Shown in pieces: positions 3,381-60,830 of a stretch of 64,000 nucleotides of DNA (position 1 is the first letter of the stretch; every line of letters begins with the position of its first letter). A model generated the notes under the pieces. The model was not told the DNA's origin. It worked only from the letters and a program-made list of their open reading frames with translations, and ran no database searches. The stretch is from Acidobacteriota bacterium (GTDB lineage Bacteria; Acidobacteriota; Terriglobia; Terriglobales; Acidobacteriaceae). The position numbers were made by a program, and so were the translations under genes. The stretch spans positions 32,078 to 96,077 of the forward strand of contig QIAM01000024.1 in the NCBI GenBank assembly GCA_003225555.1. Direction: 5' to 3'.

Positions 3381-3433
3381 ATGTGGGGACAGCCGCCCTC
3401 GGCTGTCCGTCCGGGCGCAGCCCGGTGCTGAAG
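3381..3433 (+). repeat. Family A palindromic element, intergenic copy
   Basis: ATGTGGGGACAGCCG, then CCCT, then CGGCTGTCC form the constant hairpin 1. It is followed by hairpin 2 with stem CCGGGC/GCCCGG and loop GCA. The copy lies between the convergent ends of the helical-repeat gene and the SDR gene. Confidence 0.75.
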
Positions 3434-3447
3434 AGGATCCTCGCATC

Positions 3448-4209
3448 CTACCTCCCACCGCCCACCGCAACTATCGCCCCAGTCACATACGAAGCCGCTG
3501 GCGAAAGCAGCCACAGCACCGCCTCCGCAACTTCCTCGGGCTTCCCAGCCCGGCCCATCGGAATCGTCCCCATCAGCCGCTGCAAACGGCCTGGTTCTCC
3601 ATTGTTCGCATGAATCTCAGTATCGATCAGGCCCGGAGCGACCGCGTTCACGCGAATCCCCTCGGTTGCAACCTCCCGCGCCAGTCCGAGAGTGAAAGTG
3701 TCAATCGCCCCTTTCGACGCCGCATAGTGCACCCACTCCCCCGCTGAGCCGTATTGCACGGCGCGGGACGAAATATTCACGACAGCCCCACCAGAACCGC
3801 CGCGACGCGTGGACATGCGCCGCACAGCTTCACGCGCGCATAAGAAGGAGCCAGTGACGTTGACCGCCAGGACTTCCGCAAGCGCTTTGGCGCTCACCGC
3901 CTCAACGCGCGCAAACCCGCCAGTAATGCCCGCGTTATTTGCCAAGCCTTTGATAGGACCGAGTTCACGCTCCGCAGTCTCGAACAAGCGCAAAACATCT
4001 TCTTCGCGGCTGACGTCTCCCTGAATCGCAATCGCCCGCCCGCCGGACGAACAAATTTCGCGCACGACCTGTCGAGCCCGAGCTTCACTGCGAGCGAAAT
4101 TCACCGCGACGGCAAACCCGTATTTACTAGCGCCCTTGGCCACAGCCGCGCCAATCCCCCGCGCCGCCCCGGTAACGATGAGTGCGCCGGCTTCATTGGT
4201 CTTGGACAT
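3448..4209 (-). CDS. Short-chain dehydrogenase/reductase (SDR, FabG-like)
   Basis: A 253-residue classical SDR. It shows the cofactor loop TGAARGIGAAVA near residue 13, NNAG near 85, the catalytic serine in VVNISSRA, the YAASK pair (Tyr and Lys) and the APGLIDTEIHANN segment. NFARSEARARQ after the second strand suggests NADP(H) preference. The substrate is unknown; the closest well-known relatives are 3-oxoacyl-ACP and sugar-alcohol reductases. I chose ATG 4209 because the longer start at 4227 is a TTG without a ribosome site. No operon partner: the mscS-like gene on the same strand lies downstream after a repeat-free gap of about 115 bases that starts 4327-6183 in the same direction. Confidence 0.88.
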   Translation of the reverse strand: MSKTNEAGALIVTGAARGIGAAVAKGASKYGFAVAVNFARSEARARQVVREICSSGGRAIAIQGDVSREEDVLRLFETAERELGPIKGLANNAGITGGFARVEAVSAKALAEVLAVNVTGSFLCAREAVRRMSTRRGGSGGAVVNISSRAVQYGSAGEWVHYAASKGAIDTFTLGLAREVATEGIRVNAVAPGLIDTEIHANNGEPGRLQRLMGTIPMGRAGKPEEVAEAVLWLLSPAASYVTGAIVAVGGGR

Positions 4210-4248
4210 AGGATTCGCCGCAGACAACGAAGGAGTCTGAATTGTCTA

Positions 4249-4292
4249 GAAGGCGCAGCCGTTTTCAGGCGGAGCGAAGGATCTCCCGGGCA
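4249..4292 (-). repeat. Family C repeat fragment
   Basis: On the minus strand this reads GAGATCCTTCGCTCCGCC, then TGAAAACGGCTGCGCC, nearly the same as parts of 15951-16010 and 63480-63515. It lies just upstream of the SDR start. Confidence 0.5.
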
Positions 4293-4326
4293 TCGAACTT
4301 GGACGGAGCATTCCGACCACTGGCCC

Positions 4327-6183
4327 TCACGCCTTCACCGCCTCCCGCTTCCCATGCATCAAATTGACCACGGCCTCATACAACCGCTTGCGCATCTCAT
4401 GCCGCTCGTAAGCTCGCGTAATGTAGCGGATCTGCACTTCCACGCCATCCCCCGAGGGCATCACATTCAACGCTGGCGCAGCCGAAAACGCCTGTACGCG
4501 GTAGCGGTTCGTAGTATGCTGCCATTCCTCTTCCGCCTTGCGCGCGTTGACTTCCGTTTCCTTCGTCACCAGCTTCTGAATCCCATCGATGACGGCATAA
4601 GGATCAAGGCTCGCCGGAATCGTGACTCTCAGTTCATCCCACATCCACTGTCCCGAAGTGGTGAAGTTGAAGAAGTGTCCCTCAATGGCGAAGCTGTTCA
4701 TGAACGAAACTTTTCGCCCGGTAGGATGTCCCGCATCCGTCCAGTTGCCGGTTTCGAGCAAAACCGTTTTCAGCAGCCCAATCTCCACCACTTCGCCAGC
4801 CACTCCATTGATCTCAACCCAGTCGCCCACCCGGATACCGTTGCGCCCCATCAGCGAAAACCATCCCAGGAACGCCATGATGAAATCCTTCATCGCCACC
4901 GTCAGCCCGGCGCCCGCCAGCCCAAGGATGGTTGTGGTCTGGTTGGGCAGTCCGAAGATGAGCAGCAGGATTGCGATCGCGCCCACCGCCTGTGCGGAAA
5001 ACTTGAGCACCGCGCGCAGCGTCTCTGCTCTCTTGTTCTCCGTTTTGAGGTCGCGCGTGAAGCGCTCGATCACGCGATTCGCCAAGTACACCATTAGCGC
5101 AACCAGCAGGATCCACAGCAGTACTTCGATCATGTTGTGCAACGCCGCCCGCTGCCGGATATCGACCAGGCCAATCCACCTCGCATAGATGTCATTGCAT
5201 TTCTGCTCGTCGTGGATGCGTTTCCCCAGGTCAGCCAGATTCTTCTCGTCCAGCTGGTGGTGCTTAAGCGCACCCAGCGCCGACTGCGCCGCCGCCTTCG
5301 AGTCTTCACGGCTCGACGCCTTGCTGTTCTGCGCGAATCCCTTGGCCTGCTGCTTGGCCGACTGCCGGCTTTCGTTCTCCTGTTGGGTCTCGGCAGTCAG
5401 GGCGCTGTGCTGCTGCTTCAGGCTTTCCTGCTCGGCTGCAGACTCCTGTTGCGCCTCCTCGAGTTTCGCTTTCTTGTCGCGCAATGCCTTCCACGCACGC
5501 AACACCGACAGCAGTGTATGTGCCTGGTAGTAACCCTCGACCGGATCCGCCCCCACGACCGCGTTCGTCGCCAAGTGAGCTTCCTCGTCGTCGTGTTCCT
5601 GCTTCAGCCGCTGCACTTCAGCCTGCGGGTCGCCTCCCGCCTGCTCCAGCGCTTGCGCGGCGTCGTCCCGCTCGTCCTCATCAAGCTCCAGCTGGGCCTG
5701 GGCCACATCGAGCTGGTCCTGCAGATTTTCCTTCTGCGACTCCGGCGCCGCTACCAGCTTTCGCTTCAGCTGGTTGACGTTGTCCTGGTCCTCCTGGAGC
5801 GCTCGCTGCGCCTGATCTTTTTTATCGGCCAGCTGCTTGAGTGCGGGCGTGAGCGGCGGAGGGTTCTCCTGCGCAGCGCGAAAGGCATCGAAGAACGCCA
5901 GGTCGACTTCATGGTCCGCAACCTTCTCCGCCTGGTGCGCCAGATCTTTTTCTTCCTGCGTATATGCCAGAGTGCCAAGCCGGCGCGCCGTTTGCAGCGG
6001 GCGCTGGTTCACCAGGACATGCGGCGCCACCCGCTGATTGTTGGTGGCTGCCGGTTGACTGCCAGCAGGTGGGGCGACCTCCACGCTGGTGCCGCGACGC
6101 TGCTGCGTCCGCACCATTCCCACGATGGCCGCCGCCAACAGCAGCAGCAACACACTCGCGGTCATCCAGTGCCGAATCTTCAT
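4327..6183 (-). CDS. Mechanosensitive ion channel (MscS family) with long periplasmic coiled coil
   Basis: A 618-residue protein. An N-terminal signal or anchor helix (residues 6-22) is followed by about 250 residues rich in Gln, Glu, Lys and Ala (75-330) predicted to form coiled coils. Membrane spans follow from about 345, then the MscS pore helix GLAGAGLTVAMKDFIMAFLG near 430 and the beta domain IRVGDWVEINGVAGEVVEIG. The length is well above the 280-residue MscS core, like the MscK/YnaI-type large members. It should gate on membrane tension under osmotic downshock. The Gly/Ala pore pattern is conserved. The large plus-strand frame over this gene is an antisense shadow. Confidence 0.88.
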   Translation of the reverse strand: MKIRHWMTASVLLLLLAAAIVGMVRTQQRRGTSVEVAPPAGSQPAATNNQRVAPHVLVNQRPLQTARRLGTLAYTQEEKDLAHQAEKVADHEVDLAFFDAFRAAQENPPPLTPALKQLADKKDQAQRALQEDQDNVNQLKRKLVAAPESQKENLQDQLDVAQAQLELDEDERDDAAQALEQAGGDPQAEVQRLKQEHDDEEAHLATNAVVGADPVEGYYQAHTLLSVLRAWKALRDKKAKLEEAQQESAAEQESLKQQHSALTAETQQENESRQSAKQQAKGFAQNSKASSREDSKAAAQSALGALKHHQLDEKNLADLGKRIHDEQKCNDIYARWIGLVDIRQRAALHNMIEVLLWILLVALMVYLANRVIERFTRDLKTENKRAETLRAVLKFSAQAVGAIAILLLIFGLPNQTTTILGLAGAGLTVAMKDFIMAFLGWFSLMGRNGIRVGDWVEINGVAGEVVEIGLLKTVLLETGNWTDAGHPTGRKVSFMNSFAIEGHFFNFTTSGQWMWDELRVTIPASLDPYAVIDGIQKLVTKETEVNARKAEEEWQHTTNRYRVQAFSAAPALNVMPSGDGVEVQIRYITRAYERHEMRKRLYEAVVNLMHGKREAVKA

Positions 6184-6371
6184 GGAAACTCAATCACTTT
6201 GTAAGATGCAGCTTGCCACGCGTGACAAGTTACGGTGCATCTATTGACCGTTTGGGTTGCAGTGGCATTCGGATCACTCTAACAAGAACCACAGTCCCTC
6301 CGCGATACCTGAAAACCTATTCGGAGGCCTACTCCGGGGAGCACTTCATCAGCCAAAGGGGTCTAATATCA

Positions 6372-6391
6372 CACCGGGCTAATACCCGGTG
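6372..6391 (+). promoter_or_regulatory. Leader hairpin before the TPR gene
   Basis: CACCGGG and CCCGGTG pair around the loop CTAATA, 27 bases before the start codon and just before a GGAAGG ribosome site. It could affect translation or RNA stability; function is not established. Confidence 0.35.
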
Positions 6392-6417
6392 GGGCTTTCT
6401 CTTGGAAGGTTACTGAG

Positions 6418-7254
6418 ATGAATTGGACGCTCAGAGTTTTCGCTACTCTCGCACTTGCTCTCGCCTCGTCCACAACGTTGCTGAGCGCACAATCGGATTC
6501 TGACCGGGAACTCAACCTCGGAACCCAATCCTACAAGAACGCAAAGTACGAAAAGGCCATTTGGCATTTCGAGAAGGCAGTCGCCCTCGACCCGGAAAAC
6601 ATCACCGCTCGCATGTACTTGGCGACTGCCTACGGCTCGCAATACATCCCTGGGGTCGAGCAATCGGAGAATACCGTCCTGGGGGAGAAGGCGATTGAAC
6701 AATATCAGTACGTTCTTAACGCGCCTCAAGTTGGAGACCGTCGTCTGAACAGCGCCAAGGGTATTGCGTATCTGTATCTGAACATGAAGAAGTTTGAGGA
6801 TTCGAAGAAGTACTATCTCTTGGCCTCCGACCTCGACCCTAAAGACCCGGAAAACTATTACTCCATTGGCGTTCTCGACTGGACCCAAACGTATCAGCCC
6901 CGCATGGAGGCTCGCGCCAAGCTTGATCTGAGACCGGAAGATCACCTGAATCCGAACATTGAAGCTCAACGAATGGCGTGCGACGACCTGAGGGGTCGGA
7001 ATATGCCGATGATTCAGGACGGGATAGAACAACTCACGAAGGCGATCGAGTTGCGGCCTGACTACGATGACGCCATGGCCTACATGAACCTGATGTACCG
7101 CGAGAGGGCCGACGTGGAATGCAACGACCTCGCGGCACGCGAGCAGGACTTGAAAGCAGCCGACAATTGGGTCGATAAGACTATAGCCGTTAAGAAAACC
7201 AAGGATAAGAAAGTACGGGATCTCTCGAAGCCTACGGGATCCCATCCGGAATGA
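6418..7254 (+). CDS. Secreted tetratricopeptide-repeat protein
   Basis: Encodes 278 residues with a signal peptide (residues 1-24, ending TTLLSAQ). GGAAGG lies 8 bases before the ATG. TPR-like units are visible: NLGTQSYKNAKYEKAIWHFE, AKGIAYLYLNMKKFEDSKKY and MIQDGIEQLTKAIELRPDYD. TPR proteins are scaffolds; in acidobacteria similar small secreted TPR proteins are common and uncharacterised. No enzyme motif is seen. The DUF4440 gene follows after 99 bases on the same strand with its own ribosome site. Confidence 0.8.
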   Translation: MNWTLRVFATLALALASSTTLLSAQSDSDRELNLGTQSYKNAKYEKAIWHFEKAVALDPENITARMYLATAYGSQYIPGVEQSENTVLGEKAIEQYQYVLNAPQVGDRRLNSAKGIAYLYLNMKKFEDSKKYYLLASDLDPKDPENYYSIGVLDWTQTYQPRMEARAKLDLRPEDHLNPNIEAQRMACDDLRGRNMPMIQDGIEQLTKAIELRPDYDDAMAYMNLMYRERADVECNDLAAREQDLKAADNWVDKTIAVKKTKDKKVRDLSKPTGSHPE

Positions 7255-7353
7255 AAATATTCGTCTCGTGCGCTCCCCTGTGTCTTACGTGGCCTCGGTG
7301 GTTCGCTCTTTTTGCCGTGGAGTAGAATAGTCCGCCGAGTCAGAGGAGGTTGC

Positions 7354-7842: not shown

Positions 7843-7957
7843 AGTCGGAGAGAGGAAGGTTTCTAGTCCCGCGTTAAAGGCAGAACGTGGAATCAGTAGG
7901 TTAGGGGAGCCCCTGATTCAGCTCGACGAAGAATCAACAGGGTCGAAAATGCCCTCC

Positions 7958-9759: not shown

Positions 9760-11724
9760 CTATTTCCGAAAGTGATTGCGGATCGCATCGGCTTGCACCC
9801 GGGTGACGACCGCCGACAGTGCCGCCTCGTCCGCCTGCTTGACGGCCTGAAGGCTTCCGAAGTGTTCCAACAGTCGGCGAGTTGTGCTTGTGCCCACGCC
9901 AGGAATCTCCAGCAGTTCGGTCGCGCGATCCCGCATCTGCCGCCGTTTGCGGTGGAAGGTCACAGCGAAGCGGTGGGCCTCATCACGAATCAGTTGAATC
10001 AGATGCAAGACGGGGGAGTGATGATCGAGAGCGACCGGATCCTTCTCCTGGCCGAAGACGTAGAGAATCTCTTCGCGTTTCGCAATGGCGGCGAGCGGCT
10101 GGTTGATGATTTCGAGTGATTCCAGCGCTTCAGCGGCAGCGTGCAGTTGCCCCAGTCCTCCGTCGATGAGCACCAGGCTGGGCATCGGCTTCTCTTCCTG
10201 CTGCAATCGCTTGTAGCGGCGCGTGACCACCTCGCGCATCGATGCAAAGTCGTCCACGCCTTCAACCGTGCGGATGATGAACTTCCGGTAATCGGATTTC
10301 TTCATCCGCCCCTCTTCCCACACCACCATCGAAGCAACCGTCTCCGCGCCCTGGATGTGAGAGATATCAAAACATTCGATGCGTTTTGGCAGTTCGGGGA
10401 GGCTAACAACTTCCTGCAGTTCCTCCTGAATCTTGCGTGCATTCGGCTTAAGCACGCGGAAGCGCTGATCGTAAGACTGCTTTGCATTGTTGCCCGCAAG
10501 ATCGATGAGCGATCGTTTGTCGCCGCGCAAGGGGATGAGGATATGCACCCGTGTGGGGCGGACGCTCTTGTCCGCCTGCTGCTCGGAGAGCAAGTCTTCA
10601 AGAGCTTCGCGGTCCGCGAAATCGATGGGAACGTACAGGTTCCGCGGAACATAGGGCTGGCCGATGTAGAGCTGTTTCACCAGGGCAGAGAAGAACTCCC
10701 CGGGCGAAAAGGATTTGTCGGGTTGTCCCGGTTCATGTGGGGACAGCCGCCCTCGGCTAGCTTTCTCTTCGAGATCTGTAGAGCTATTAGCGAAATTCTC
10801 AGGCGAGCTTTGCTCGCCCGGACAGCCGGGGGCGGCTGTCCCCACATGTTCAGTGGTGATCTCCGGAAGGTCTTCCCAAAAGAACTCCCGTCGATCGACC
10901 ATCTTGCCCCCCCGCATGTGAAACAGATTTACCGCCACCATGCCGTTTTCATAGTGATAGCCGAAGACGTCGGCATCGTCGCCTTCGGCAGCGGCTATAC
11001 GCTGGCGCTCCTGCAACTGCTCAACTGTTGAAATCAGATCGCGATAACGCGCGGCGCGTTCGTACTCCTGCGCAGCCGCCGCCTGCTCCATGCGGGCCTG
11101 CAAGGAGCGGCTCAGGTCAGTCGGTCTGCCTTCCAGAAACAGTTTCACGTCGCGGACGGCTTCCTGGTACGCGTCGGGCGTGGTCAGTTCCTGTACACAC
11201 GGGCCGAGACAGCGCTTGATGTAATACTGCAGGCACGGGCGCGGATGGAAGCGCGTCAAATCCACTTTGCATGACGGAATCAGAAAGTTGCGGTGAATCA
11301 GGTCGACGATGCGGTACGCCAGGTTGGCAGGGAAGTAGGGGCCATAATAGGCGTTGCCGTCCTTGCGCAGGCGGCGGGTGACGTAAACACGTGGCCAGCG
11401 CTCGCCCAGGGTGAGCTTTACGTAGGGATAGGTCTTGTCGTCGCGCAGCAGAATGTTGAAGCGCGGCTTGCGCTGCTTGATCAGATTGTTTTCGAGGGCG
11501 AGCGCCTCTTTGTTGTTGGCGACCACGATGTAATCGACGTCGACCGCCTCGCGCAGTAGCGTTCCAGTCTTGGCGTCCTCCCAGCGCGCTTCGTGGAAGT
11601 AGCTCGCTACCCGGCTTCGCAGGTTCTTCGCCTTGCCAACGTAGATGACGTCGCCCTCGGCGTTCTTGTATAGATACACGCCGGGCTCGGCGGGGATAGT
11701 GCGGATTTTTGCGGGTAAGTCCAT
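9760..11724 (-). CDS. uvrC: Excinuclease ABC subunit C (UvrC) with two in-frame repeat insertions
   Basis: Encodes 654 residues, longer than the usual 600-620. Domains in order: GIY-YIG nuclease (9-95; GVYLYKNAEGDVIYVGKAKN), UVR motif (about 205-240), the RNase-H-like 5' incision domain (FDISHIQGAETVASMVVW to SLVLIDGGLGQLHAA) and a C-terminal helix-hairpin-helix (EIPGVGTSTTRRLLEHFG). UvrC cuts both sides of a lesion handed over by UvrB. Residues 292-331, between DLPE and PGEFFSALVKQLY, are encoded by a family A inverted pair (10734-10848). Residues 383-390 come from a smaller palindrome. Both lie outside the catalytic cores, so the protein may still work (inference). Confidence 0.96.
   Translation of the reverse strand: MDLPAKIRTIPAEPGVYLYKNAEGDVIYVGKAKNLRSRVASYFHEARWEDAKTGTLLREAVDVDYIVVANNKEALALENNLIKQRKPRFNILLRDDKTYPYVKLTLGERWPRVYVTRRLRKDGNAYYGPYFPANLAYRIVDLIHRNFLIPSCKVDLTRFHPRPCLQYYIKRCLGPCVQELTTPDAYQEAVRDVKLFLEGRPTDLSRSLQARMEQAAAAQEYERAARYRDLISTVEQLQERQRIAAAEGDDADVFGYHYENGMVAVNLFHMRGGKMVDRREFFWEDLPEITTEHVGTAAPGCPGEQSSPENFANSSTDLEEKASRGRLSPHEPGQPDKSFSPGEFFSALVKQLYIGQPYVPRNLYVPIDFADREALEDLLSEQQADKSVRPTRVHILIPLRGDKRSLIDLAGNNAKQSYDQRFRVLKPNARKIQEELQEVVSLPELPKRIECFDISHIQGAETVASMVVWEEGRMKKSDYRKFIIRTVEGVDDFASMREVVTRRYKRLQQEEKPMPSLVLIDGGLGQLHAAAEALESLEIINQPLAAIAKREEILYVFGQEKDPVALDHHSPVLHLIQLIRDEAHRFAVTFHRKRRQMRDRATELLEIPGVGTSTTRRLLEHFGSLQAVKQADEAALSAVVTRVQADAIRNHFRK
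10557..10576. repeat. Family E-like palindrome inside uvrC
   Basis: GGCGGAC and GTCCGCC pair around the loop GCTCTT. On the minus strand it is translated as part of ADKSVRP in a place where UvrC proteins usually have a shorter loop. It resembles the start of the hairpin at 2515-2554. Confidence 0.45.
10734..10848. repeat. Family A inverted pair inserted in uvrC
   Basis: Two family A copies face each other: CATGTGGGGACAGCCG at the left and CGGCTGTCCCCACATG at the right, separated by about 70 bases. The right copy keeps hairpin 2 with stem GGCGAGC/GCTCGCC and loop AAA. The whole 115-base segment is read through by uvrC without a stop and gives peptides such as GTAAPGCPGEQ and SRGRLSPHEPG. Confidence 0.85.
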
Positions 11725-11771
11725 GGGCGCGAGGAATGTGCTTATTCTATTGGATGGGAGGTGTGTGCGTT

Positions 11772-18601: not shown

Positions 18602-18730
18602 ATGTGGGGAGAGCCACCCGCGGCTGTCCAGGCGAGCAAAGCTCGCTTGATGTCAGCGTAACCCTCTTAGAAATCAGAAAGCACCCGAGCTTCGCTCGGC
18701 ATGAACAGCCGAGGGCGGCTCTCCCCACAT
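18602..18730. repeat. Family A inverted pair, intergenic
   Basis: Left ATGTGGGGAGAGCC and right GGCTCTCCCCACAT are inverted. Inside lie two hairpin 2 versions, GGCGAGC/GCTCGC with loop AAA and CCGAGC/GCTCGG with loop TTC. Both hairpin 1 arms carry the same AGAG change for ACAG, so the pair may have evolved together. Confidence 0.8.
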
Positions 18731-33959: not shown

Positions 33960-34010
33960 ACATGTGGGGACAGCCGCCCCCGGCTGTCCATTCGTCCCGA
34001 AGGGACGAGG
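33960..34010 (+). repeat. Family A copy at the start of the solute-binding protein gene
   Basis: CATGTGGGGACAGCCG, loop CCCC, CGGCTGTCC, followed by hairpin 2 with stem TCGTCCC/GGGACGA and loop GAA. It abuts the GTG start of the minus-strand gene, so it occupies the expected ribosome-binding region. Confidence 0.8.
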
Positions 34011-34600: not shown

Positions 34601-34665
34601 ACGTAGGGACAGCCGCCTCTTCGGCAAGCTCAGGGCAGGCCTCGGCTGTCCGGTCGGCGCAAAGC
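34601..34665 (+). repeat. Family A copy interrupted by a family C-like segment
   Basis: GTAGGGACAGCCGCCT and CTCGGCTGTCCGG are the two halves of family A hairpin 1. Between them, at about 34618-34640, lies CTTCGGCAAGCTCAGGG plus CAGGC, the family C motif. Hairpin 2 is degenerate here. The nesting shows that C entered after A. Confidence 0.75.
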
Positions 34666-34672
34666 GAGCCTA

Positions 34673-35923
34673 CTAGACAAATGAAATCTTTCCCAGTACC
34701 GCCCCGCGTTTCGCGCCTGTGGCTGACGGAACATTCGCAGGCCGACGATGCCATGTCTCATACGCCAACACCGCAAAAGCCACAGCCTCCTTCGCTTCGG
34801 AAGGCAACCCGAACTCATCCGAGAATCGGATCTGCACTCCCAGTGGCGTCACCTCGTTGGATAACATCTTGACCAGCGCGGCATTCCTTACTCCGCCACC
34901 GGAAACAATCATCTCCTGAAATGTGGGCACAGCGGCCCCCGGCCGTGCGTTCGCCGCAGAGCGGCGAGGTGTAGCGATCCCTTTCAGCAGAAACCGCCCA
35001 ACCGCATCCGCGATGGACTTCGCGGTAAGGGCAGTCGCCGTGGCCACTACATCCTGCTTGCGTGCACCGCGACAGTTCCGAAGAAACTCTCCCACGAACT
35101 CCCGTCCAAACTGCTCGCGCCCCGCGGCCTTCGGAGGCGGTTTGCGAAAGAATGGTCGCCGCAATAGTCGCTGCAGTACCGGCTCTAGGACTCTCCCTGA
35201 GGCCGCAATCTTCCCACTGCGATCGAAAGGCTTGCCGAACAATTTCTCCGTCACCGCGTCGATCACCATGTTTCCCGGACCAGTGTCAAAGGCGACCACA
35301 TCGCTCGCGTCCGCTCCCGCTGGAATGGCAGTTAGATTAGCAATGCCGCCAATGTTCTGCACGATCCGTCCCACCTGCGGATCGCCGAACAGCAGATAGT
35401 CAAGATAGGGCACCAGCGGCGCGCCTTTGCCCCCCGCCGCCATGTCTGCGGGACGGAAATCGGAAACCACCGGCACGCCCACTCGCGCCGCGATCACAGC
35501 CGCCTCGCCCGTCTGCCATGTCGCCGCTACCGAGCGCCCGAGAAACCGTGCGGCTTCGCCCTGGTGATACAGCGTCTGCCCGTGGCAGCCGATCAGATCC
35601 GCCTTCGATTTGAAGCGTCTCTGGGTCGCGAGCACCGCGTCCGCATAAAGCTCGCCAAGCAGAAAGTTAAGCCGCGCCAAATCCGCCACGCTGGCCCGGG
35701 AAGCATTCATCGCCGCCAGCACCTCCGAACGAACTCTTGCCGGATAAGGATATTCCGCATGCGCCACCAGTCGAATTGTGTGGGACGGACACTCTTTTCC
35801 GCCACTGCCGGAAGTCACGCCGGAGGCGTCGCGCGAACCTGATTCGGCCGGCTCACCAATCCGCACCAGCGCTACATTGATCCCATCCGCCGACGTCCCG
35901 CTCATAACGCCTGCTACGATCAT
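34673..35923 (-). CDS. anmK: Anhydro-N-acetylmuramic acid kinase
   Basis: A 416-residue ASKHA kinase. Signature regions are VAGVMSGTSADGINVALVRI, GCHGQTLYHQGEA, SVAATWQTGEAAVIAARVGV, PVVSDFRPADMAAGG, IVQNIGGIANLTAIP and VAFDTGPGNMVIDAV. It turns 1,6-anhydro-MurNAc from wall turnover into MurNAc-6-phosphate. It lies downstream of nagZ on the same strand, a natural pair for muropeptide recycling; murQ is not present. Residues 318-335 (ATPRRSAANARPGAAVPT) come from a family A repeat and interrupt the region before MIVSGGGVRNAALVKML, where AnmK proteins normally have a short loop. Confidence 0.94.
   Translation of the reverse strand: MIVAGVMSGTSADGINVALVRIGEPAESGSRDASGVTSGSGGKECPSHTIRLVAHAEYPYPARVRSEVLAAMNASRASVADLARLNFLLGELYADAVLATQRRFKSKADLIGCHGQTLYHQGEAARFLGRSVAATWQTGEAAVIAARVGVPVVSDFRPADMAAGGKGAPLVPYLDYLLFGDPQVGRIVQNIGGIANLTAIPAGADASDVVAFDTGPGNMVIDAVTEKLFGKPFDRSGKIAASGRVLEPVLQRLLRRPFFRKPPPKAAGREQFGREFVGEFLRNCRGARKQDVVATATALTAKSIADAVGRFLLKGIATPRRSAANARPGAAVPTFQEMIVSGGGVRNAALVKMLSNEVTPLGVQIRFSDEFGLPSEAKEAVAFAVLAYETWHRRPANVPSATGAKRGAVLGKISFV
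34920..34972 (-). repeat. Family A copy inside anmK
   Basis: ATGTGGGCACAGCGG and CCGGCCGTGCG are a mutated hairpin 1. Hairpin 2 is intact as TCGCCGC/GCGGCGA with loop AGA. It is read through without a stop by anmK on the opposite strand. Confidence 0.75.
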
Positions 35924-37448: not shown

Positions 37449-37640
37449 CTAAATGCTCCAAAAGCTTCTGTGGAGAGCTACTGGAAAGCTGAAGCGACCC
37501 CAAATGAAATGGCCGATCTCCCTAACGAGCAGCAGACCGGACACAACAAAAAGCGCTGCGGCCCCTAGCGTGGTGAACCAGTCACTATCCACGGTGATTT
37601 CCCAGATGCGAGGGGATCGATTCTTCGGCTGAGTATTCAC
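37449..37640 (-). CDS. Tiny hypothetical membrane protein
   Basis: 63 residues from GTG 37640, overlapping the mutS stop (GTGA), so translation may be coupled to mutS. One hydrophobic helix ([20 protein letters not shown]) and a basic start. No family recognised. Its reality rests on spacing and the hydrophobic helix. Confidence 0.45.
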
Positions 37641-40315
37641 TCGATTTCCCCTTTCAACGCCGCCAATAGATTCAGCGCCTCCAGCGGCGTCAGCCGGTTT
37701 AGGTCCACTTCGCGCAGCTTCTCCAGCACCGGCTGCGACAGCGGCGTAAAGATCGTCAACTGTGTATGCGGGAGCGATACTCCCGGCGACAAATGTCCTG
37801 TCGCCACCCGCTCGGCGGATTCATGCTCGGCCAAGACGTCGCGCGCCCGCTCTACTACCTCGTTCGGCAAGCCCGCCAGCTTCGCGACCTCGATGCCGTA
37901 GCTGCGGTCCGCCGCGCCCGGTTCGACCTTGCGCAGAAAGACGATGCCTCCGCCCGTTTCTTTTACCGACACGTGGTAATTCTTCACGCCCGAAAGCTGC
38001 TCGGCCAGTTCGGTCAACTCGAAATAATGTGTGGCGAACAGAGTCTTCGCTCGCACCCGCGCGTGCAGATATTCAACCGCCGCCCAGGCAATCGCCAGCC
38101 CATCGTAAGTCGCCGTCCCACGCCCGACTTCGTCGAGCAGAATCAAAGACCGAGCCGTCGCGGTGTGCAGGATCGCCGCCGTCTCGGTCATCTCCACCAT
38201 GAAAGTCGAACGCCCGCGCGCCAGGTTGTCGCTGGCTCCGATGCGGGTGAAGACACGGTCCACGACGCCCAGCCGCGCCGATCGCGCCGGAACGAACGAG
38301 CCCATTTGCGCCATGATGACGATCAGAGCGGCCTGCCGCAAATAAGTCGACTTCCCGCCCATATTAGGCCCGGTCAGCAACAGAATGGTATGCGTGGTCG
38401 AATTCAGATACAAATCGTTCGGCACGAAGCGCTCGCTGCCACCCGCCATCTCTTGCTGCTCGATCACGGGATGCCGACCTTCGATAATTTCCAAATCGCC
38501 AGCCCCGGTTGTCTGCGACTCGACAAACTGTGGCCGGCAATAATTCCGCAGCGCCGCAATGTGCGCCATCGAGGCCAGGACGTCGACTTCAGCCAGCGCC
38601 AACGCGGTCTGCCGGATTCGCTTCGCCTCCGCCGCAATCGCTGTCCGAAGCTCCGTGAACAACCGACGCTCGATCTCGACAATCTTTTCCTGCGCGTCGA
38701 GGATCTTGGCCTCGTACTCCTTCAATTCCGGCGTGGTGAAGCGCTCTGCCCCGACCAGCGTCTGCTTCCGCTCATAATCCTGCGGCACGAGATGCAGGTT
38801 CGCCTTCGACACCTCAAAGTAGTAGCCAAAAATAGAATTGAACTTGACCTTCAGCGAGGAAATACCCGTCCGCCCGCGTTCCCGCTGCTCAATCTGTGCC
38901 AGCACCTGCTTGCTGTTGCGCGAAAGTTCGCGCAGTTCGTCCAGTTCGCGATCGACGCCTGCCGCAATCACCCCGCCATCGGCAAAACTCAAGGGTGGCT
39001 CGGGCACAATCGTCTTCTCGATGCGGTCACGCAGATCACTCAGCTCATCCAGCGCAGCATGAAGCACTCTCAGCCGTTCCGCGGCAAGACGTCCCACGGC
39101 CGCCTTCACCGCCGGAATCTTTCCCAACGAAGCCACCAGCGCGAGCACGTCCCGCGGGTTCGCCGTCTCGAGAGTCACCCGGCTGAGCAGTCGCTCCAAA
39201 TCCAGCACCCCATCCAGCGCCCGCCGCAACTCCTCCCGCGCTATCAGATCCTTGACGCCCGCCTCGACCGCGTCCAGTCGCGCGTTGATCTCAACCAACT
39301 CCAACGAAGGCCGCAGCAACCACGACCGTAGCAACCGCTTTCCCATCGGCGTGACTGCGCAATCAATCGACCGAAACAGAGTCACACCAGCATCCGTGCC
39401 GGCAAACAGCGGCTCGATCAATTCCAGATTTCGCACCGTGACCGCATCCAGCACCAGGCACTTCTGCCGCTCGTACCAGCCGATGCGGTCCACGTGATCG
39501 AGCGACCCGCGCTGCGTCGAGCGTACGTAATAAAGGATCGCTCCAGCCGCCGCCGCAGCGGCCGTGCGGCCCGCGAGCCCAAATCCCTCCAGCGACAAAA
39601 CCCCGAAATGATTCTCGAGCAAAGGAATGGCATGATCCGGGGAGAAAATCCAGTCATCGAGAGGAGTCTCGGTCCAGCGCGAAGGTCCCTGTGGGGACAG
39701 CCGCCCTCGGCTGTCCGGCCGAGCGAAGCTCGGCAGCTTTTCCCTCGGAGCACCTGCGCCCTCGAACAGCGGCGCCGCCGAGCCATACAGCAACTCCCTC
39801 GGCCGCAACTGCTCCAACTCCTCCTGCACCCTCCGCAACGCCCCGTCCCCCACGAACTCCGTAGCCCGAAACTCCCCGGTAGACAAATCCAAGGCCGCGA
39901 ACCCAACTCGCTCTCCCACCTGCGCCAGCGCCGCCAGAAAATTGTTCTCCTCCGACCCCAGCGATGAATCCGCCGCCGTCCCCGGCGTCACCACCCGCGT
40001 CACTTCCCGCCGCACCAGCTTCTTCGCCAGCCGCGCATCTTCCATCTGCTCGCAGATCGCGACCTTAAATCCCTTGCGAATGAGCTTGCCGATGTATCCC
40101 TCCGCCGCGTGGTAGGGCACTCCGCACATCGGCACCGCGATGCCTTTCTCTTTGTTCCGCGACGTGAGCGTGATCTGCAGTTCTTTGGACGCGACAATCG
40201 CATCATCAAAGAAAAGTTCGTAGAAATCTCCCAGACGAAAAAACAGCAACGCTGTAGGGTGCTCTTTCTTGACCGCGGCATATTGCCGCATCAGCGGAGT
40301 GGACGGCTCGGTCAT
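37637..40315 (-). CDS. mutS: DNA mismatch repair protein MutS with an in-frame repeat
   Basis: An 892-residue protein, slightly above the usual 850-870. Mismatch-recognition domain: [15 protein letters not shown] with the FYE wedge. Levers and clamp follow, then the ABC ATPase: Walker [18 protein letters not shown], Walker [19 protein letters not shown] and the signature region [16 protein letters not shown]. MutS finds mismatches and recruits MutL, which is not in the window. Residues 194-209 ([16 protein letters not shown]) are the translation of a family A repeat in the connector domain, a place of low constraint. The large plus-strand frame over mutS is an antisense shadow. Confidence 0.97.
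39689..39737 (-). repeat. Family A copy inside mutS
   Basis: TGTGGGGACAGCCG, loop CCCT, CGGCTGTCC, then hairpin 2 with stem GCCGAGC/GCTCGGC and loop GAA. It is in frame and gives DSRGRLSPQ on the coding strand. Confidence 0.85.
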
Positions 40316-49737: not shown

Positions 49738-49790
49738 CCATGTGGTGACAGCCGCCTCGGCTGTCGACGCAAGCTCCACGAACCCGGGGT
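49738..49790 (+). repeat. Family A copy, degenerate
   Basis: CATGTGGTGACAGCCG and CCTCGGCTGTC form hairpin 1; hairpin 2 is decayed (GACGCAAGCTCC). Part of a 533-base gap (49625-50157) that holds only repeats. Confidence 0.55.
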
Positions 49791-55453: not shown

Positions 55454-55496
55454 CCACCCTGTCGCAAAGAGCGCGACAAGGGTGGGGCACCCTCAA
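55454..55496 (-). repeat. Family B copy 5
   Basis: CCACCCTGTCGC, loop AAAGAGC, GCGACAAGGGTGG and GGCACCC. Stem sequence changed from other copies but pairing kept. Confidence 0.75.
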
Positions 55497-55594
55497 TTTT
55501 TTTAGGGTGGTTGGTTAAATCGCAGCGGGAAAGGGAACAACGTGTTGAAAGATCATAGCCAGCCCGCCCGAGTATTTGAGCACAGTGAGGAGAT

Positions 55595-55636
55595 CCCATG
55601 TCTCGCGAAGGAGGCGAGACATGGGGCACCCGGCTA
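55595..55636 (+). repeat. Family B copy 6
   Basis: A perfect 12-bp stem, CCCATGTCTCGC and GCGAGACATGGG, around the 7-base loop GAAGGAG, then GCACCC. Confidence 0.8.
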
Positions 55637-55749
55637 CCTGGGCCGTTGACGGTCGACACGATAAGGATCATCATGTTGGCGCCCGGCCGGTGTCGGTTTG
55701 TGGCGACCTTGCCCGCCTGCACCCAATTGATCCTTCCTTGGAGGTCACC

Positions 55750-56835: not shown

Positions 56836-56857
56836 CTGTTTTCTCCCCACCAGATGC

Positions 56858-56875
56858 ACCAAATTGGTGTATACT
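56858..56875 (+). promoter_or_regulatory. Possible operator and -10 box of the RHH gene
   Basis: CACCAAATTGGTG is a near-perfect palindrome, followed by TATACT (56870-56875). The start codon is only 10 bases after it, so the transcript may be leaderless. A third ACTGGTG half-site follows. An autoregulating RHH antitoxin-type site is plausible. Confidence 0.45.
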
Positions 56876-56884
56876 GGTGCAGCC

Positions 56885-57166
56885 ATGCCAACACCCAAGC
56901 GAGCGCGAAAACAACCAGCCACAAGGCACGTCCGCCGAAGCGTCACTTTGCCTCCAAGAATTGCGAAACAGGTCGAGACCCTGGCCCGGCAGCACGATCT
57001 CAGCGATAACCGTGTTCTGGTGGAACTCATCGAGCAGGGAATCGAGGCCCGTCAGCAAAAGGAAAAGGCATTCTTCCAGTTGGCCGAGCGCTTTCGATCA
57101 GCCAGTGATCCCGAGCAGGTGAAGCAATTAGGCGATGCCCTTGGCCGCTTCGTTTTCGGTGAATGA
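56885..57166 (+). CDS. Ribbon-helix-helix (antitoxin-like) DNA-binding protein
   Basis: 93 residues from ATG 56885 (a GTG at 56864 is in frame). TRHVRRSVTLPPRIAKQVET and LARQHDLSDNRVLVELIEQG form the RHH strand-helix-helix, followed by a helical tail (KEKAFFQLAERFRSASDPEQ). Such proteins act as dimeric repressors, often antitoxins. It is followed, 15 bases later, by an 81-residue protein of unknown family, so the pair has the layout of a toxin-antitoxin unit. The palindrome just upstream is a likely operator. Confidence 0.82.
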   Translation: MPTPKRARKQPATRHVRRSVTLPPRIAKQVETLARQHDLSDNRVLVELIEQGIEARQQKEKAFFQLAERFRSASDPEQVKQLGDALGRFVFGE

Positions 57167-57181
57167 CAAACTTGGTGAGGA

Positions 57182-57427
57182 ATGCCCCAGATTGAAGCCT
57201 GGTCTCGCCTTCCTGCTGCCCTTCGTGGACACCTAGTCGAGCGCATGCACGACCGCCACATTGGTCTCGAAGACTTGAACCGCTTGCGGGTCTGGATGGA
57301 GACAAAGCCAGACGTTCCGGAAGCACCGTGGTTCAAAGACGTCGGATCATTCAAGCTGTGCGGCGAAGGCAAATATCCAAAGACGTTCCTTCTTCCCGGC
57401 CAAGCGGCTCGCGGTGGAGAGCTCTAG
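57182..57427 (+). CDS. Small protein of unknown function, partner of the RHH gene
   Basis: 81 residues from ATG 57182. It reads PQIEAWSRLPAALRGHLVER, MHDRHIGLEDLNRLRVWMET, PDVPEAPWFKDVGSFKLCGE and YPKTFLLPGQAARGGEL. It is soluble, helical then beta. The end GSFKLCGEGKYPKTFLLPGQ looks conserved (I recall similar ends but no annotation). It does not resemble PIN, RelE or MazF toxins. Function unknown; the neighbour suggests a regulatory or toxin role. Confidence 0.6.
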   Translation: MPQIEAWSRLPAALRGHLVERMHDRHIGLEDLNRLRVWMETKPDVPEAPWFKDVGSFKLCGEGKYPKTFLLPGQAARGGEL

Positions 57428-57549
57428 CTCACTCGCCGCCCGACGTCGGAGGTCCGATGCCCGACGCCGACTTTACCCCCGCAAGTCCCCGTGATACTCT
57501 GTAAACGTCACAACGACAATCGATTAAAAGACAGGAGTGCACCAGGTTA

Positions 57550-57816
57550 GTGCTAGCCAGAGAGCAAAAGAAATCCCTCATTGACCAGTACGGTACGCAT
57601 ATTACGGACACCGGGAGCCCGGAGGTCCAGATCGCGTTGATCAGCGAACGGATTGGGCAATTGACGGAGCACTTCAAGACGCACCAGAAAGACCACGGCT
57701 CGCGCCGCGGCCTTCTCATGCTGGTCAGCAAGCGGCGTCGCTTGCTGAATTACCTGAAGAAATACGATTCCGAGCGCTACAAGACCGTCATCGGCAAACT
57801 CGGCATCCGCAAGTAG
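57550..57816 (+). CDS. rpsO: 30S ribosomal protein S15
   Basis: 88 residues from GTG 57550, starting [20 protein letters not shown] after the initiator Met. Characteristic parts are [20 protein letters not shown] and [21 protein letters not shown]15 binds 16S rRNA and helps assemble the 30S platform. The SD (AGGAG) is 13 bases away. pnp follows 393 bases later, the classic rpsO-pnp order. A weak TTTACC (57472) and TACTCT (57495) pair may be the promoter. Confidence 0.97.
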
Positions 57817-58209
57817 CTACTTGTCCCGGGTCGTCCATCTTCGCGCCGAAGCGCCATGAAGGAAGATGGAAGGCGGATCGAATCGCCAAGCGCATGTCCG
57901 CCCACGCTCCGGGTATTTCTGAGACACCGTCAGCAACGGTCCAGCATTGAGGAACTTTCCATCCGTGCATCTTTTAGAGCAACCCTCGTCCCTCCCTTCC
58001 CGGGAGGGCCAGAACGGGAATGGCACGACTTCGAGTCGAGCCGTTCACGGCGTCGAGCATTGGGGCCATCATCCCCGAGGGCCAATGTCTCCCTTATCAC
58101 ATCTCTGTCGCGCACAAGCCTGGGCCAGGAACATAGCCCATAGCCCATCAGCCAGTGAGCTGAGAGCTGATAGCTGACAGCTGAGAGCTGTCTCCCAAAG
58201 GACTGAATC
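57817..58209. other. rpsO-pnp intergenic region
   Basis: 393 bases with no gene. The last part holds tandem AGCTGA-type repeats (GCTGAGAGCTGATAGCTGAC then AGCTGAGAGCTG) just before the AAGGACTGA ribosome site of pnp. No clear RNase III-type hairpin was recognised, though one is typical of this spacer in other bacteria. Confidence 0.45.
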
Positions 58210-60657
58210 ATGAAACCAGAAGCAACTAGCATTACAGTCGACCTCGCCGGCGGCAAACAACTCACCTTCGAAACTGGAAAATTAGCCAAGCAGGCGCATG
58301 GATCGGCGGTTGTCCGCCTCCATGACAATGTGGTGCTGGCTACGGCCACCGCCAATCCCGATCCGCGCGAGGGCATCGACTTCTTCCCGCTCACCGTCGA
58401 CTATCGCGAATATACCTACGCCGGCGGACGCATCCCCGGCGGCTTCATCAAGCGCGAAGGACGTCCCAGCGAGCGCGAAATTCTTACCAGCCGGCAGATT
58501 GATCGTCCGGTGCGGCCGCTGTTTCCCGAAGGCTTCAGGTGCGAGACCCAAGTCATTGCCTTCGTGCTCTCAGCTGACACTGATAACGACCCCGACGTGA
58601 TGGGCATCAACGGCGCATCGTGTGCGCTGACGCTTTCCGATATTCCGTTCATGGGACCGATCGGGGCGGTGCGGGTTGGCTTGGTCAATGGACAGTTCAT
58701 CGTCAATCCCACTTACACCGAGATGCGCGACAGCTTGCTGAACATCATGGTGGTCGGCACCGCCGAAGGTATCGTGATGATCGAGTCGGGCGCGAAGGAA
58801 GTGAAAGAAGAGACCGTCGTTGACGCCATCGAGTTCGGCCACACCGAGGTCAAGAAGATCTGCGCTGCCATCAACGAGCTGCGCGCGAAAGTAGGCAAAC
58901 CCAAGCGCGCCGTTGAACCCGTGCAATTCGACGAGGCTTACTACAATGATCTCCAGAAGCGCATCGGCGCTGACCTCGCCGACCGCGTCGACACGCAGAA
59001 GCATCCCAAGGCGGAAAGCTACACGCTGGTTAAAGATCTGAAGAAGCAACTGCTCGCGGCGATTCCAGAAGACGACGACGACGCGCAGCTAAAACTCAAG
59101 CACTACTTCGAAACGCTGCGCGAGCGCATCTTCCGCGAGCAGGTCATCAATCAGAAGCATCGCCCGGACGGCCGCGCCTTCGACGAAATTCGCCCCATCT
59201 GGATCGAAGTAGGAGTCCTGCCCAGAACCCACGGCAGCGCCATCTTCACCCGCGGCGAAACCCAGGCACTGGTCACGACCACTCTCGGCACCAGCGACGA
59301 CATGCAGCGCATCGAGGCCTTCGAAGGCGAAGCCAAAAAGCGCTTCCTCTTGCATTACAACTTCCCTCCGTTTTCGGTGGGGGAGGTGGCGTTTCTGCGG
59401 GGGGCGGGACGACGGGAGATTGGGCACGGGGCTTTGGCGGAGCGGGCGATTTCGGCGGTGTTGCCGGCGGAAGAGCAGTGGCCTTACGCGATGCGCGTGG
59501 TTTCGGACATTCTGGAGTCGAACGGGTCGTCTTCGATGGCTACGGTTTGCGGAGCTTCGCTTTCGCTGATGGATGCTGGCGTTCCGCTGAAGGCTCCTGT
59601 TGCCGGTGTCGCGATGGGGTTGGTGAAGGAAGGGAATGACTACGCCATCCTGACCGACATTGCGGGCGCGGAAGATCACTACGGCGACATGGACTTTAAA
59701 GTTGCCGGAACTCGCGATGGGATTACCGCGCTGCAGATGGACATCAAAGTTGCGGGCATCACGGCGCAGATCATGCGGGAAGCGCTGGCTCAGGCGCAGC
59801 GTGGACGGCTGCATATTCTTGGCAAGATGGAGGAAGTGATTGCCAAGGAGCGGGAGAAGATCTCGCAGTATGCTCCGCGCTTCTATACGGTACAGATTCC
59901 TGTCGACAAGATTCGCGATCTGATCGGGCCGGGCGGCAAGATGATTCGCAGCATTGTGGATCAGACTGGCGTGAAGATCGACGTGGAAGATTCGGGAATC
60001 GTGAAGGTTGCTTCTAGCGATGAGGCTTCGGCGGCTAAGGCGCTGCAGATTATTGGTGACCTGACGGCGACTGCGGAAGTTGGGAAGACTTATCTTGGCA
60101 AGGTGACGCGGCTGGCGGATTTCGGGGCGTTCGTCGAGATCATTCCCGGGACCGATGGGTTGCTGCACATCAGTGAAGTGGCGGAGCATCGCATCGGCGA
60201 TATCCGCGATGAGCTGAAGGAAGGCGATCAAGTGCTGGTGAAAGTGCTGGCGGTGGAAGGCAACCGCATCCGGCTGTCGCGCAAGGCGATTCTGAAAGAG
60301 CAGCGCGCGAAGATGGGTGGGGGAAGTGGAGATGCGGGTGGGGGAAGCGGCGATGTATCCCCTGTTCCAGAGGGCGAGGGTGCGCCAGCGGGAGCGTTTG
60401 TGATTGAAGGCGGAGGCGATTTTCCGGATGAGCCCTCGAACGAGCCCAATTTCAATCGCGAGGGTGCACCGTACGCTGGGGGGAATGATCGTCCTCGTGG
60501 GGACCGTCCGCATGGAGGAGATCGCGGCGGTCGAGGAGGGCGTCCTGGCGGCGGTGGTGGACGCGGGCGCGGTGGACGCGGACGTAGCGGCGGGGGTGGC
60601 GGCGGCCGCGGGCGTGGGGGTCCGGGTGGCGGCCACGGCGGCGGCGGGCGGCACTGA
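58210..60657 (+). CDS. pnp: Polyribonucleotide nucleotidyltransferase with a long RGG/Gly tail
   Basis: 815 residues, about 110 longer than usual. Two RNase PH domains (1-220 and 315-545), linked by an all-alpha part, with FTRGETQALVTTTLGTS and HYNFPPFSVGEVAFLRGAGR (phosphate loop). KH domain: IRDLIGPGGKMIRSIVDQTG (about 575). S1 domain: VGKTYLGKVTRLADFGAFVE (624-700). Residues 701-815 are Gly/Arg/Asp-rich with RGG boxes (GGDRGGRGGRPGGG, GRGRGGRGRSGGG). PNPase degrades RNA 3' to 5' with phosphate. The tail may bind RNA. Codon choice changes near 59360 (C-ending to G-ending codons). Confidence 0.97.
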   Translation: MKPEATSITVDLAGGKQLTFETGKLAKQAHGSAVVRLHDNVVLATATANPDPREGIDFFPLTVDYREYTYAGGRIPGGFIKREGRPSEREILTSRQIDRPVRPLFPEGFRCETQVIAFVLSADTDNDPDVMGINGASCALTLSDIPFMGPIGAVRVGLVNGQFIVNPTYTEMRDSLLNIMVVGTAEGIVMIESGAKEVKEETVVDAIEFGHTEVKKICAAINELRAKVGKPKRAVEPVQFDEAYYNDLQKRIGADLADRVDTQKHPKAESYTLVKDLKKQLLAAIPEDDDDAQLKLKHYFETLRERIFREQVINQKHRPDGRAFDEIRPIWIEVGVLPRTHGSAIFTRGETQALVTTTLGTSDDMQRIEAFEGEAKKRFLLHYNFPPFSVGEVAFLRGAGRREIGHGALAERAISAVLPAEEQWPYAMRVVSDILESNGSSSMATVCGASLSLMDAGVPLKAPVAGVAMGLVKEGNDYAILTDIAGAEDHYGDMDFKVAGTRDGITALQMDIKVAGITAQIMREALAQAQRGRLHILGKMEEVIAKEREKISQYAPRFYTVQIPVDKIRDLIGPGGKMIRSIVDQTGVKIDVEDSGIVKVASSDEASAAKALQIIGDLTATAEVGKTYLGKVTRLADFGAFVEIIPGTDGLLHISEVAEHRIGDIRDELKEGDQVLVKVLAVEGNRIRLSRKAILKEQRAKMGGGSGDAGGGSGDVSPVPEGEGAPAGAFVIEGGGDFPDEPSNEPNFNREGAPYAGGNDRPRGDRPHGGDRGGRGGRPGGGGGRGRGGRGRSGGGGGGRGRGGPGGGHGGGGRH

Positions 60658-60708
60658 TTCGCATGGGCAGGATTCGCCGCTGAACGGGATGGATCAAGAA
60701 ACAAGAAA

Positions 60709-60735
60709 GGCCGCGACTCAGGTTGCGGTCTTTTT
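60709..60735 (+). terminator. Intrinsic terminator of pnp
   Basis: GGCCGCGAC and GTTGCGGTC form a 9-bp stem with two G-T pairs around TCAG, then five T residues. It begins 51 bases after the stop codon. Confidence 0.9.
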
Positions 60736-60784
60736 CACTTAGGCGCGCCCGCATTTGTGGTTGTAGCGGACCTCAAAGCACCGG

Positions 60785-60830
60785 GCCGTGCCCGGTCGGA
60801 CAGCCGAGGGCGGCTGTCCCCACACGAGCT
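60785..60830 (-). repeat. Family A copy upstream of the cupin gene
   Basis: In reverse orientation: hairpin 2 ACCGGGC/GCCCGGT with loop CGT precedes GGACAGCCG, AGGG, CGGCTGTCCCCAC. It lies 40 bases before the cupin start; the longest cupin frame would begin inside it. Confidence 0.8.

What the first reader, a model, noticed from the sequence alone, without database searches (positions are those of the whole stretch)
3381..60830. Family A: constant hairpin 1, covarying hairpin 2, no stop codon in six frames
At least ten copies (3381, 10734 pair, 18602 pair, 33960, 34601, 34920, 39689, 49738, 60785) share hairpin 1 (GGACAGCCG, short loop, CGGCTGTCC). Hairpin 2 follows with different sequences but kept pairing: CCGGGC/GCCCGG, GGCGAGC/GCTCGCC, CCGAGC/GCTCGG, TCGTCCC/GGGACGA, TCGCCGC/GCGGCGA, ACCGGGC/GCCCGGT, each with a 3-base loop. 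Compensatory change implies selection for structure in RNA or single-stranded DNA. The core reads open in all six frames, which explains why it can sit inside genes on either strand. I could not decide if this family is already named.
Basis: seen in the sequence. Interest (0 to 1): 0.88.

Follow-up and report, generated by a model that had tools for sequence, protein, structure and literature searches.

The report
Two-hairpin REP repeats in Acidobacteriota
This Acidobacteriota genome carries about a hundred copies of a 44-base repeat built of one constant and one variable hairpin; in related genomes the repeat flanks a REP-type transposase gene that likely moves it, and its hairpins largely stay base-paired between species even where a copy lies inside a DNA-repair gene.

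Summary
The window holds 11 copies at 9 sites, consensus GTGG + hairpin 1 (GGACAGCCG-N3-4-CGGCTGTCC); 8 of 11 have an intact hairpin 2. A covariance model gives 112 matches in the genome, matches in 25 of 25 genus members and 0 of 16 others. Hairpin 2 covaries above chance. It is a REP: 7 of 7 RAYT transposases at 63-100% identity to the G020 RAYT are flanked on both sides by this hairpin type, against 0 of 10 examined at 54-61%, which carry other hairpins. The own, 86%-complete genome shows no intact cognate RAYT. New features: a REP whose first hairpin is fixed and whose second varies; inverted pairs (REPINs) whose ends usually carry different hairpin-2 classes (17 of 21, classes drawn after looking); in-frame copies in mutS, uvrC and pcrA. 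At the orthologous pcrA site both hairpins covary between species although the copy is fixed in a coding gene, and mismatches show no clear G.T bias, so 'compensatory change implies selection' does not follow: template-switch repair or conversion fits as well. Kind known (REP/REPIN/RAYT); variant new.

The parts
3383..3426 (+). element copy: GTGG + hp1 + hp2 CCGGGC/GCCCGG (loop GCA), intergenic
10737..10758 (+). truncated copy (hp1 3' arm lost), left half of an inverted pair inside uvrC
10802..10845 (-). element copy, hp2 GGCGAGC/GCTCGCC (loop AAA), right half of the pair inside uvrC
18604..18647 (+). left end of REPIN, hp2 class A (GCGAGC)
18684..18728 (-). right end of REPIN, hp2 class A (CCGAGC); a like-class pair, against the A|B rule
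33964..34008 (+). element copy, hp2 TCGTCCC/GGGACGA, near the 5' end of a solute-binding-protein ORF (true start uncertain)
34603..34651 (+). degenerate copy (GTAG tag), an insert in the hp1 loop, hp2 broken
34923..34967 (+). diverged copy, hp2 TCGCCGC/GCGGCGA, inside the anmK ORF
39691..39734 (+). element copy, hp2 GCCGAGC/GCTCGGC, in frame inside mutS; orthologous site followed in 19 genomes
49742..49766 (+). degenerate copy with hp1 only
60780..60823 (-). element copy, hp2 ACCGGGC/GCCCGGT, downstream of the PNPase-like ORF
9760..11724 (-). uvrC ORF with UvrC domains on both sides of the inserted pair
37637..40315 (-). mutS ORF carrying an in-frame copy
34673..35923 (-). anmK ORF carrying a copy towards its C-terminus

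Best explanation
The repeats are two-hairpin REP elements that in related genomes flank a REP-associated tyrosine transposase (RAYT) gene, which likely recognises GTGG plus the constant hairpin 1 and moves the element as single-stranded DNA, while hairpin 2 is likely read by shape only. Shown: the 44-nt anatomy, copy numbers, covariation, flanking RAYT genes with HUH and Tyr motifs, and an inverted-pair (REPIN) arrangement with tags outward (spans 104-145 nt within the range searched). Inferred: that this RAYT cuts and copies it; that the REPIN is the mobile unit and single copies are its remnants; that hairpin 1 is held constant by recognition; and that hairpin 2 stays paired at DNA level, probably by template-switch repair or conversion together with loss of badly folding copies from the mobile pool. 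In folding predictions the two hairpin-1 arms of a REPIN zip together and, when the two hairpin 2s differ, both usually remain as side hairpins at the inner end.
For: RAYT flanks: 7 of 7 RAYTs at 63-100% identity to the G020 protein carry GGACAGCCG-type hairpins on both sides (G020, G004, G001, G015, G010, G023, G011), against 0 of 10 examined at 54-61% (16 matches in that band were listed), which carry heads such as GGGCGGACG, GCGGCGGACG, CCCGGACG, GACCGGGTC or GCGCGGGCG; two of these 10 have a copy over 1 kb away. NCBIfam REP_Tyr_transpos over its cut-off in 3 of 4 (fourth 79.4 against 80). Nearest solved structure by sequence is E. coli TnpArep 4er8, E=1.2e-4. Conserved DHVH, WQ and Y..[EDQ]NP motifs in the cognate clade. 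Exact-copy number is higher in the 5 genomes with a RAYT of at least 71% (142, 79, 75, 46, 4) than in the other 20 genus members (Mann-Whitney one-sided p=0.011; counts). Of 39 neighbour pairs under 260 nt, 30 are inverted with tags outward. Covariation. Predicted ssDNA fold; 22 REPINs.
Against: No intact cognate RAYT in the own genome: 4 partial Y1_Tnp matches of other kinds, best match to the cognate RAYT 34% over part of its length; the genome is 86% complete. No movement or cleavage was observed. Presence/absence is seen at the mutS site, but no near-identical strain pair gives an exact insertion junction. The GTRG tag is absent at the hairpin beside the G011 RAYT (GCAG), and one flanking copy at the G023 RAYT is degenerate. 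41 of 209 exact hairpin-1 copies pair at 4 or fewer of 6 positions in hairpin 2.
Confidence: 0.78

Rival explanations
1. The covariation is mutational, not selected: quasi-palindrome correction (template switching) or conversion by other copies rewrites one arm from the other, so pairing is kept even in copies with no function.
For: At the in-frame pcrA site, in 11 in-register species, both hairpins keep 90.9% paired cells with 5 pairs changed on both sides (shuffle mean 2.1) and 11 double-change cells (2.7), 0 of 500 shuffles reaching either, although this copy sits in a coding gene. No clear G.T over A.C preference. Hairpin-1 forms at that site resemble other REP heads of the genus, as conversion would give. 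Mechanism described in PMC8794818 (abstract and opening seen).
Against: Related species inflate such counts, and the number of further pair types is not unusual (152 of 500 shuffles as high). Hairpin 1 hardly varies within the genome, so something constrains its sequence. Badly unpaired copies exist. Hairpin-2 mismatches lean slightly to G.T (15 against 9).
Confidence: 0.5
2. The hairpins act in RNA, as terminators or mRNA stabilisers or processing sites, and selection on transcripts keeps the pairs.
For: Hairpin 2 is followed, a few bases on, by a weak T-rich stretch (T in about half of copies at three positions); REPs elsewhere are thought to act in RNA (PMC3733652, abstract passage).
Against: No clear wobble bias; copies lie in both orientations inside coding genes; no Rfam family at gathering score in the window. 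Gene orientation and termination were not tested.
Confidence: 0.15
3. Hairpin 2 is not part of the element but a pre-existing target hairpin beside which hairpin 1 inserts.
For: Other families join degenerate REPs to unrelated stem-loops (PMC3733652, section 16 read).
Against: Hairpin 2 starts 0-2 nt after hairpin 1 in 133 of 140 copies that have it, recurs beside RAYT genes with the same stem in three species (GCTGGGC), and both ends of most REPINs carry it.
Confidence: 0.07
4. The inverted pairs are MITEs of a DDE transposase rather than REPINs of a RAYT.
For: Units of roughly 104-145 nt with identical inverted ends.
Against: RAYT genes flanked by the same ends, hairpin head tracking RAYT identity. 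DDE genes were not searched for.
Confidence: 0.05

Closest known systems
REP sequences and REPtrons (RAYT/TnpAREP), e.g. E. coli, Stenotrophomonas, Marinomonas
   Same: GTRG tag at the foot of a palindrome, high copy, cognate HUH-Y1 RAYT flanked by copies (PMC8266576 and PMC6006769, passages read)
   Different: two adjacent hairpins per element, the first fixed and the second variable; the E. coli REP is one hairpin with a bulge in its stem
REPINs of Pseudomonas fluorescens
   Same: inverted REP pairs; compensatory changes reported as common on either side of the REPIN hairpin (PMC3116915, passages read)
   Different: here pairing is local within each end's hairpin 2, and the two ends mostly carry different hairpin-2 classes
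TIRtrons/TIRYT including an Acidobacteria group (Koribacter, Terriglobus, Granulicella, Acidobacterium)
   Same: same phylum; some TIRs share a GGGGWSAS motif that GGGGACAG fits; some TIRs are 'double palindromic' (PMC3733652, section 16 with legends read; figure not available)
   Different: sequences could not be compared; within-genome covariation of the second palindrome is not described in what was read
Rickettsia palindromic elements and other intragenic REPs
   Same: in-frame copies in genes, DNA-repair genes prominent (PMC3733652, abstract and passages)
   Different: the RPEs are described as CGTC-tagged, and CGTC repeats as not associated with transposase genes; here GTGG and a RAYT

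Membership tests
REP / REPtron | GTRG tetranucleotide at the foot of the hairpin | tested here: met
   a tag-free search gave 5 exact hairpins in the window, all 5 with GTGG at one foot; exception GCAG at the G011 RAYT. Later copy counts required the tag, so they do not test it
REP / REPtron | short palindrome at high copy number | tested here: met
   112 model matches at E<=0.001 in the own genome, matches in 25 of 25 genus members, 0 of 16 others (at most 150 candidates scored per genome)
REP / REPtron | RAYT gene flanked by the same hairpin | tested here: met
   7 of 7 relatives' RAYTs at >=63% identity; not found in the own genome
REP / REPtron | transposase with HUH and single catalytic Tyr, RAYT family | tested here: met
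   by sequence only:
REP / REPtron | ssDNA binding, cleavage and strand transfer by the cognate RAYT | not testable with these tools
   needs protein work
REP / REPtron | mainly extragenic | tested here: inconclusive
   15 of 44 rows lie in ORFs with at least 60 codons on both sides, a few being double-counted palindrome strands; gene calls not made
REPIN | two REPs in inverted orientation as the prevalent higher unit | tested here: met
   30 inverted, 8 tandem, 1 divergent among neighbours under 260 nt; most of the 282 copies in the fetched loci are nevertheless single
Rickettsia palindromic element | CGTC end tag | tested here: not met
   tag is GTGG in the exact window copies
known RNA family (Rfam 15) | match at gathering score | tested here: not met
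   0 matches in the window
Acidobacteria TIRtron | TIR sequence and TIRYT clade identity | not tested
   published figure and additional files not readable here

The most novel reading that the evidence does not exclude
Hairpin 2 is an end code. The mobile unit is an asymmetric REPIN whose two ends share one transposase-binding hairpin but are told apart by unlike fold-only hairpins (class GAGC against class GGGC/GGGCC), which stops the ends zipping fully and leaves a branched tip for the transposase. In the fixed copies the pairing of both hairpins is kept by arm-to-arm rewriting of the DNA itself, so covariation is produced without any RNA function.
Probability: 0.28. Interest if true: 0.72.

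Novelty: new variant of a known kind. Interest (0 to 1): 0.52.

Why it matters
Covariation is usually taken as proof of RNA structure. Here it appears in what is likely a mobile DNA element, including a fixed copy inside a coding gene, so it offers a natural test of whether template switching or conversion makes covariation without RNA selection. A REP with one fixed and one free hairpin also separates what a RAYT would read by sequence from what it would read, if at all, by shape, and the genus holds many RAYT/hairpin families side by side for testing co-evolution.

Tried and rejected
First Y1_Tnp loci: none of the 29 relatives' loci fetched first (L069-L097) was flanked by the element; of 40 further RAYT loci fetched, four were. 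The Y1 remnant about 300 bp from a copy at G000:C73 looked like a partner but belongs to another, IS200-like type with its own palindromes. Exact empty sites: element flanks in relatives are only about 69-87% alike where they align, so most intergenic sites give no clean junction; G011 lacks copies at several window sites. A RNA reading through G.T excess found no clear bias. My first counts of degenerate copies (498, 504, hairpin-1 mismatches) double-counted palindromes on both strands; one search replaces them (282 copies); the exact-copy sets (187, then 209 after more loci) require a tag and are little affected. REPIN hairpin-2 classes were drawn after inspection; of 29 REPINs in hand, 7 with a broken hairpin 2 and 1 unclassifiable were left out, leaving 17 unlike of 21 (expected 10.8, p=0.009). 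Two of the 17 REPINs (G020:C542, C632) had no locus and are not. Like-class pairs exist, among them the window's own REPIN, and 4 pairs beside RAYT genes (L243, L250, L266, L283) are A|A but too widely spaced for the pattern. In one search, 14 of 17 unlike, 1 of 4 like and the 1 unclassified pair keep both hairpin 2s local. The pcrA alignment A1 holds 11 of 20 genomes, the ones in gap-free register; the other 9 have indels, decay or no recognisable element. No structure prediction or database-wide protein search was run.
Full report
What is there. The window (59% G+C) is part of a 4.42 Mb, 114-contig, 86%-complete assembly. The repeat reads AT-GTGG-GGACAGCCG-NNNN-CGGCTGTCC-(0-2 nt)-hairpin 2. 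In 187 exact copies the base before GTGG is T in 171 and the one before it A in 140; of 140 with a good hairpin 2, 90 have a 7-bp stem and 128 a 3-nt loop. Loops in 168 good copies are GAA 94, GCA 29, AAA 21. C-GAA-G is the core of the very stable DNA mini-hairpin GCGAAGC; that is recalled, with only a search listing behind it. The window has 11 copies at 9 sites, 8 with an intact hairpin 2.

Number and spread. The exact pattern GTGGGGACAGCCG-N4-CGGCTG occurs 49 times in the genome. A covariance model from 20 own copies gives 112 matches at E<=0.001 in the own genome, matches in 25 of 25 genus members and 0 of 16 others; at most 150 candidates per genome were scored with stricter filters, so counts are floors. 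The exact full hairpin occurs in 23 of 25 genus members and 0 of 16 others, and in 10 of 399 genomes drawn from the class: all 6 of the genus, 3 others of the family (1, 6 and 1 copies) and 1 elsewhere. It is essentially a genus-level family. No Rfam family matches in the window.

Covariation. In 20 aligned own copies, chosen in one register, hairpin 1 hardly varies (8 of 9 pairs constant), while hairpin 2 has both-side changes at 5 of 7 pairs with 97.1% of cells paired; double-change cells 24 against 6.2 in shuffles and covariation score 0.227 against 0.083, none of 500 shuffles as high; the number of doubly changed pairs (5) is reached by 20 of 500 and the number of pair types by 65 of 500. 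Without that choice, 209 exact-hairpin-1 copies give 130 with 6/6 pairs against 24.1 with re-dealt 3' arms and 0.4 with shuffled bases. Other GTRG families in the same loci serve as a contrast: GCGCAGCGC-type 0 of 25, GACGGACA 0 of 8, GCGCGGGC-type 1 of 26 with a 6/6 hairpin 2; GACCGGGTC 4 of 8, GGACGGCCG 4 of 5 and GGGCGGACG 4 of 12 do have one.

The mobiliser. Y1-type transposase genes are common among relatives (33 of 41 genomes searched). Of 40 further loci fetched, four were immediately flanked by the hairpin, and a protein search added three. All 7 RAYTs with 63-100% identity to the G020 protein have GGACAGCCG-type hairpins on both sides; 10 examined at 54-61% have other heads. Hairpin and enzyme thus change together, as reported for REPtrons (PMC6006769, passage). 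The proteins match NCBIfam REP_Tyr_transpos (3 of 4 over the cut-off), Pfam Y1_Tnp (4 of 4) and, weakly, the E. coli TnpArep structure 4er8; they keep DHVH, WQ and Y..[EDQ]NP. Beside the RAYT the 3' copy has the same hairpin-2 stem, GCTGGGC, in G020, G004 and G015. The own genome has no intact cognate gene.

Units. Among 282 distinct copies in fetched loci, neighbours within 260 nt are inverted with tags outward in 30 of 39 cases. A pattern for complete inverted pairs gave 17 REPINs in 6 of 41 genomes. One end usually has a hairpin 2 ending GAGC before the loop, the other GGGCC or GGGC: 17 of 21 classifiable REPINs in hand are unlike, 10.8 expected, p=0.009, with classes defined after looking and copies not independent. 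Folded as ssDNA, hairpin-1 arms of the two ends pair with each other in all 22 REPINs tested; both hairpin 2s stay local in 14 of 17 unlike pairs, 1 of 4 like pairs and the one unclassified pair. Four RAYT-flanking pairs are like-class, which goes against a strict rule.

Copies in genes. The window's inverted pair lies inside uvrC, one copy in mutS and one in anmK. Elsewhere in the genome two copies lie in pcrA/uvrD between the helicase and Tudor domains. At the mutS site 22 genus loci were fetched, own included, and 19 could be anchored (not G005, G009 and the partial G022); lengths between anchors run from 55 nt (three genomes with no trace of the element) to 157 nt and are all equal modulo 3, 19 of 19. 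At the pcrA site 20 of 20 genomes agree modulo 3. Intragenic REPs, often in repair genes, are already known (PMC3733652), so this is confirmation.

A correction to the finding's inference. At the pcrA site hairpin 1 differs between species (GGACGGCCG, GGACGGGCG, GGGCGGACG, GGACGGACA) with its pairing kept, while hairpin 2 is often the same GCGGGGC-loop-GCCCCGC; in the 11 in-register species of 20, 90.9% of cells pair and 11 cells have double changes against 2.7 in shuffles (0 of 500 reach it), though the number of pair types is not unusual (152 of 500). This copy is fixed in a coding gene. Single mismatches in hairpin 1 (34 copies) are A.C 13 and G.T 8, in hairpin 2 (44 copies) G.T 15 and A.C 9: no clear wobble bias. 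Pairing is therefore likely kept, at least in part, by something that needs neither RNA function nor mobility; template switching (PMC8794818) or conversion between copies would do it. I cannot separate these two from selection on folding in ssDNA, nor exclude selection on the mRNA of pcrA.

Known or new. REP, REPIN and RAYT are established (PMC3116915, PMC8266576, PMC6006769, PMC3733652; passages, and section 16 of the last, read). TIRtrons with a GGGGWSAS motif and some double palindromic TIRs, with an Acidobacteria group of transposases, are reported (PMC3733652), and the present GGGGACAG fits that motif; their figure could not be compared. Searches for the sequence and for two-hairpin REPs found no description of this family (open-licence papers only, capped listings). 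I call it a new variant of a known kind.

Noticed in passing
window 34603-34651; mutS site of G019 and G023 (L315, L316); pcrA site of G013 (L356): A second repeat (CTGCCCTGAGC...GCCGAAGGG-like) sits inside the hairpin-1 loop or the element, in several species; it seems to insert into hairpin loops.
   Followed up: no
L319 (G020 mutS site), L266:2836: Another insert (CCGGGGTCCCC...) follows the 5' arm of hairpin 1 at two unrelated places.
   Followed up: no
L243-L294: The genus holds many RAYT/hairpin families side by side (heads GGGCGGACG, GACCGGGTC, GCGCAGCGC, GCGCGGGCAC, GACGGACAC and more), many RAYTs having their own flanking head.
   Followed up: partly
uvrC site, G011 (L221-L224): At the uvrC site where the window has an inverted pair of this element, G011 has a different inverted repeat (TCATCCTGAGG...); by my arithmetic the gap differs by 39 nt, a multiple of three. 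The site looks like a hot spot.
   Followed up: partly
L031-L033, L070-L085: IS200-like single-domain transposases (Y..NQ/Y..EQ-like motifs) with their own palindromic flanks; partial copies in the own genome.
   Followed up: no
pcrA site 1 across species: Hairpin 1 differs between species while hairpin 2 is largely kept, the reverse of the pattern between copies of one genome; possible exchange of hairpin 1 between REP families in place.
   Followed up: partly
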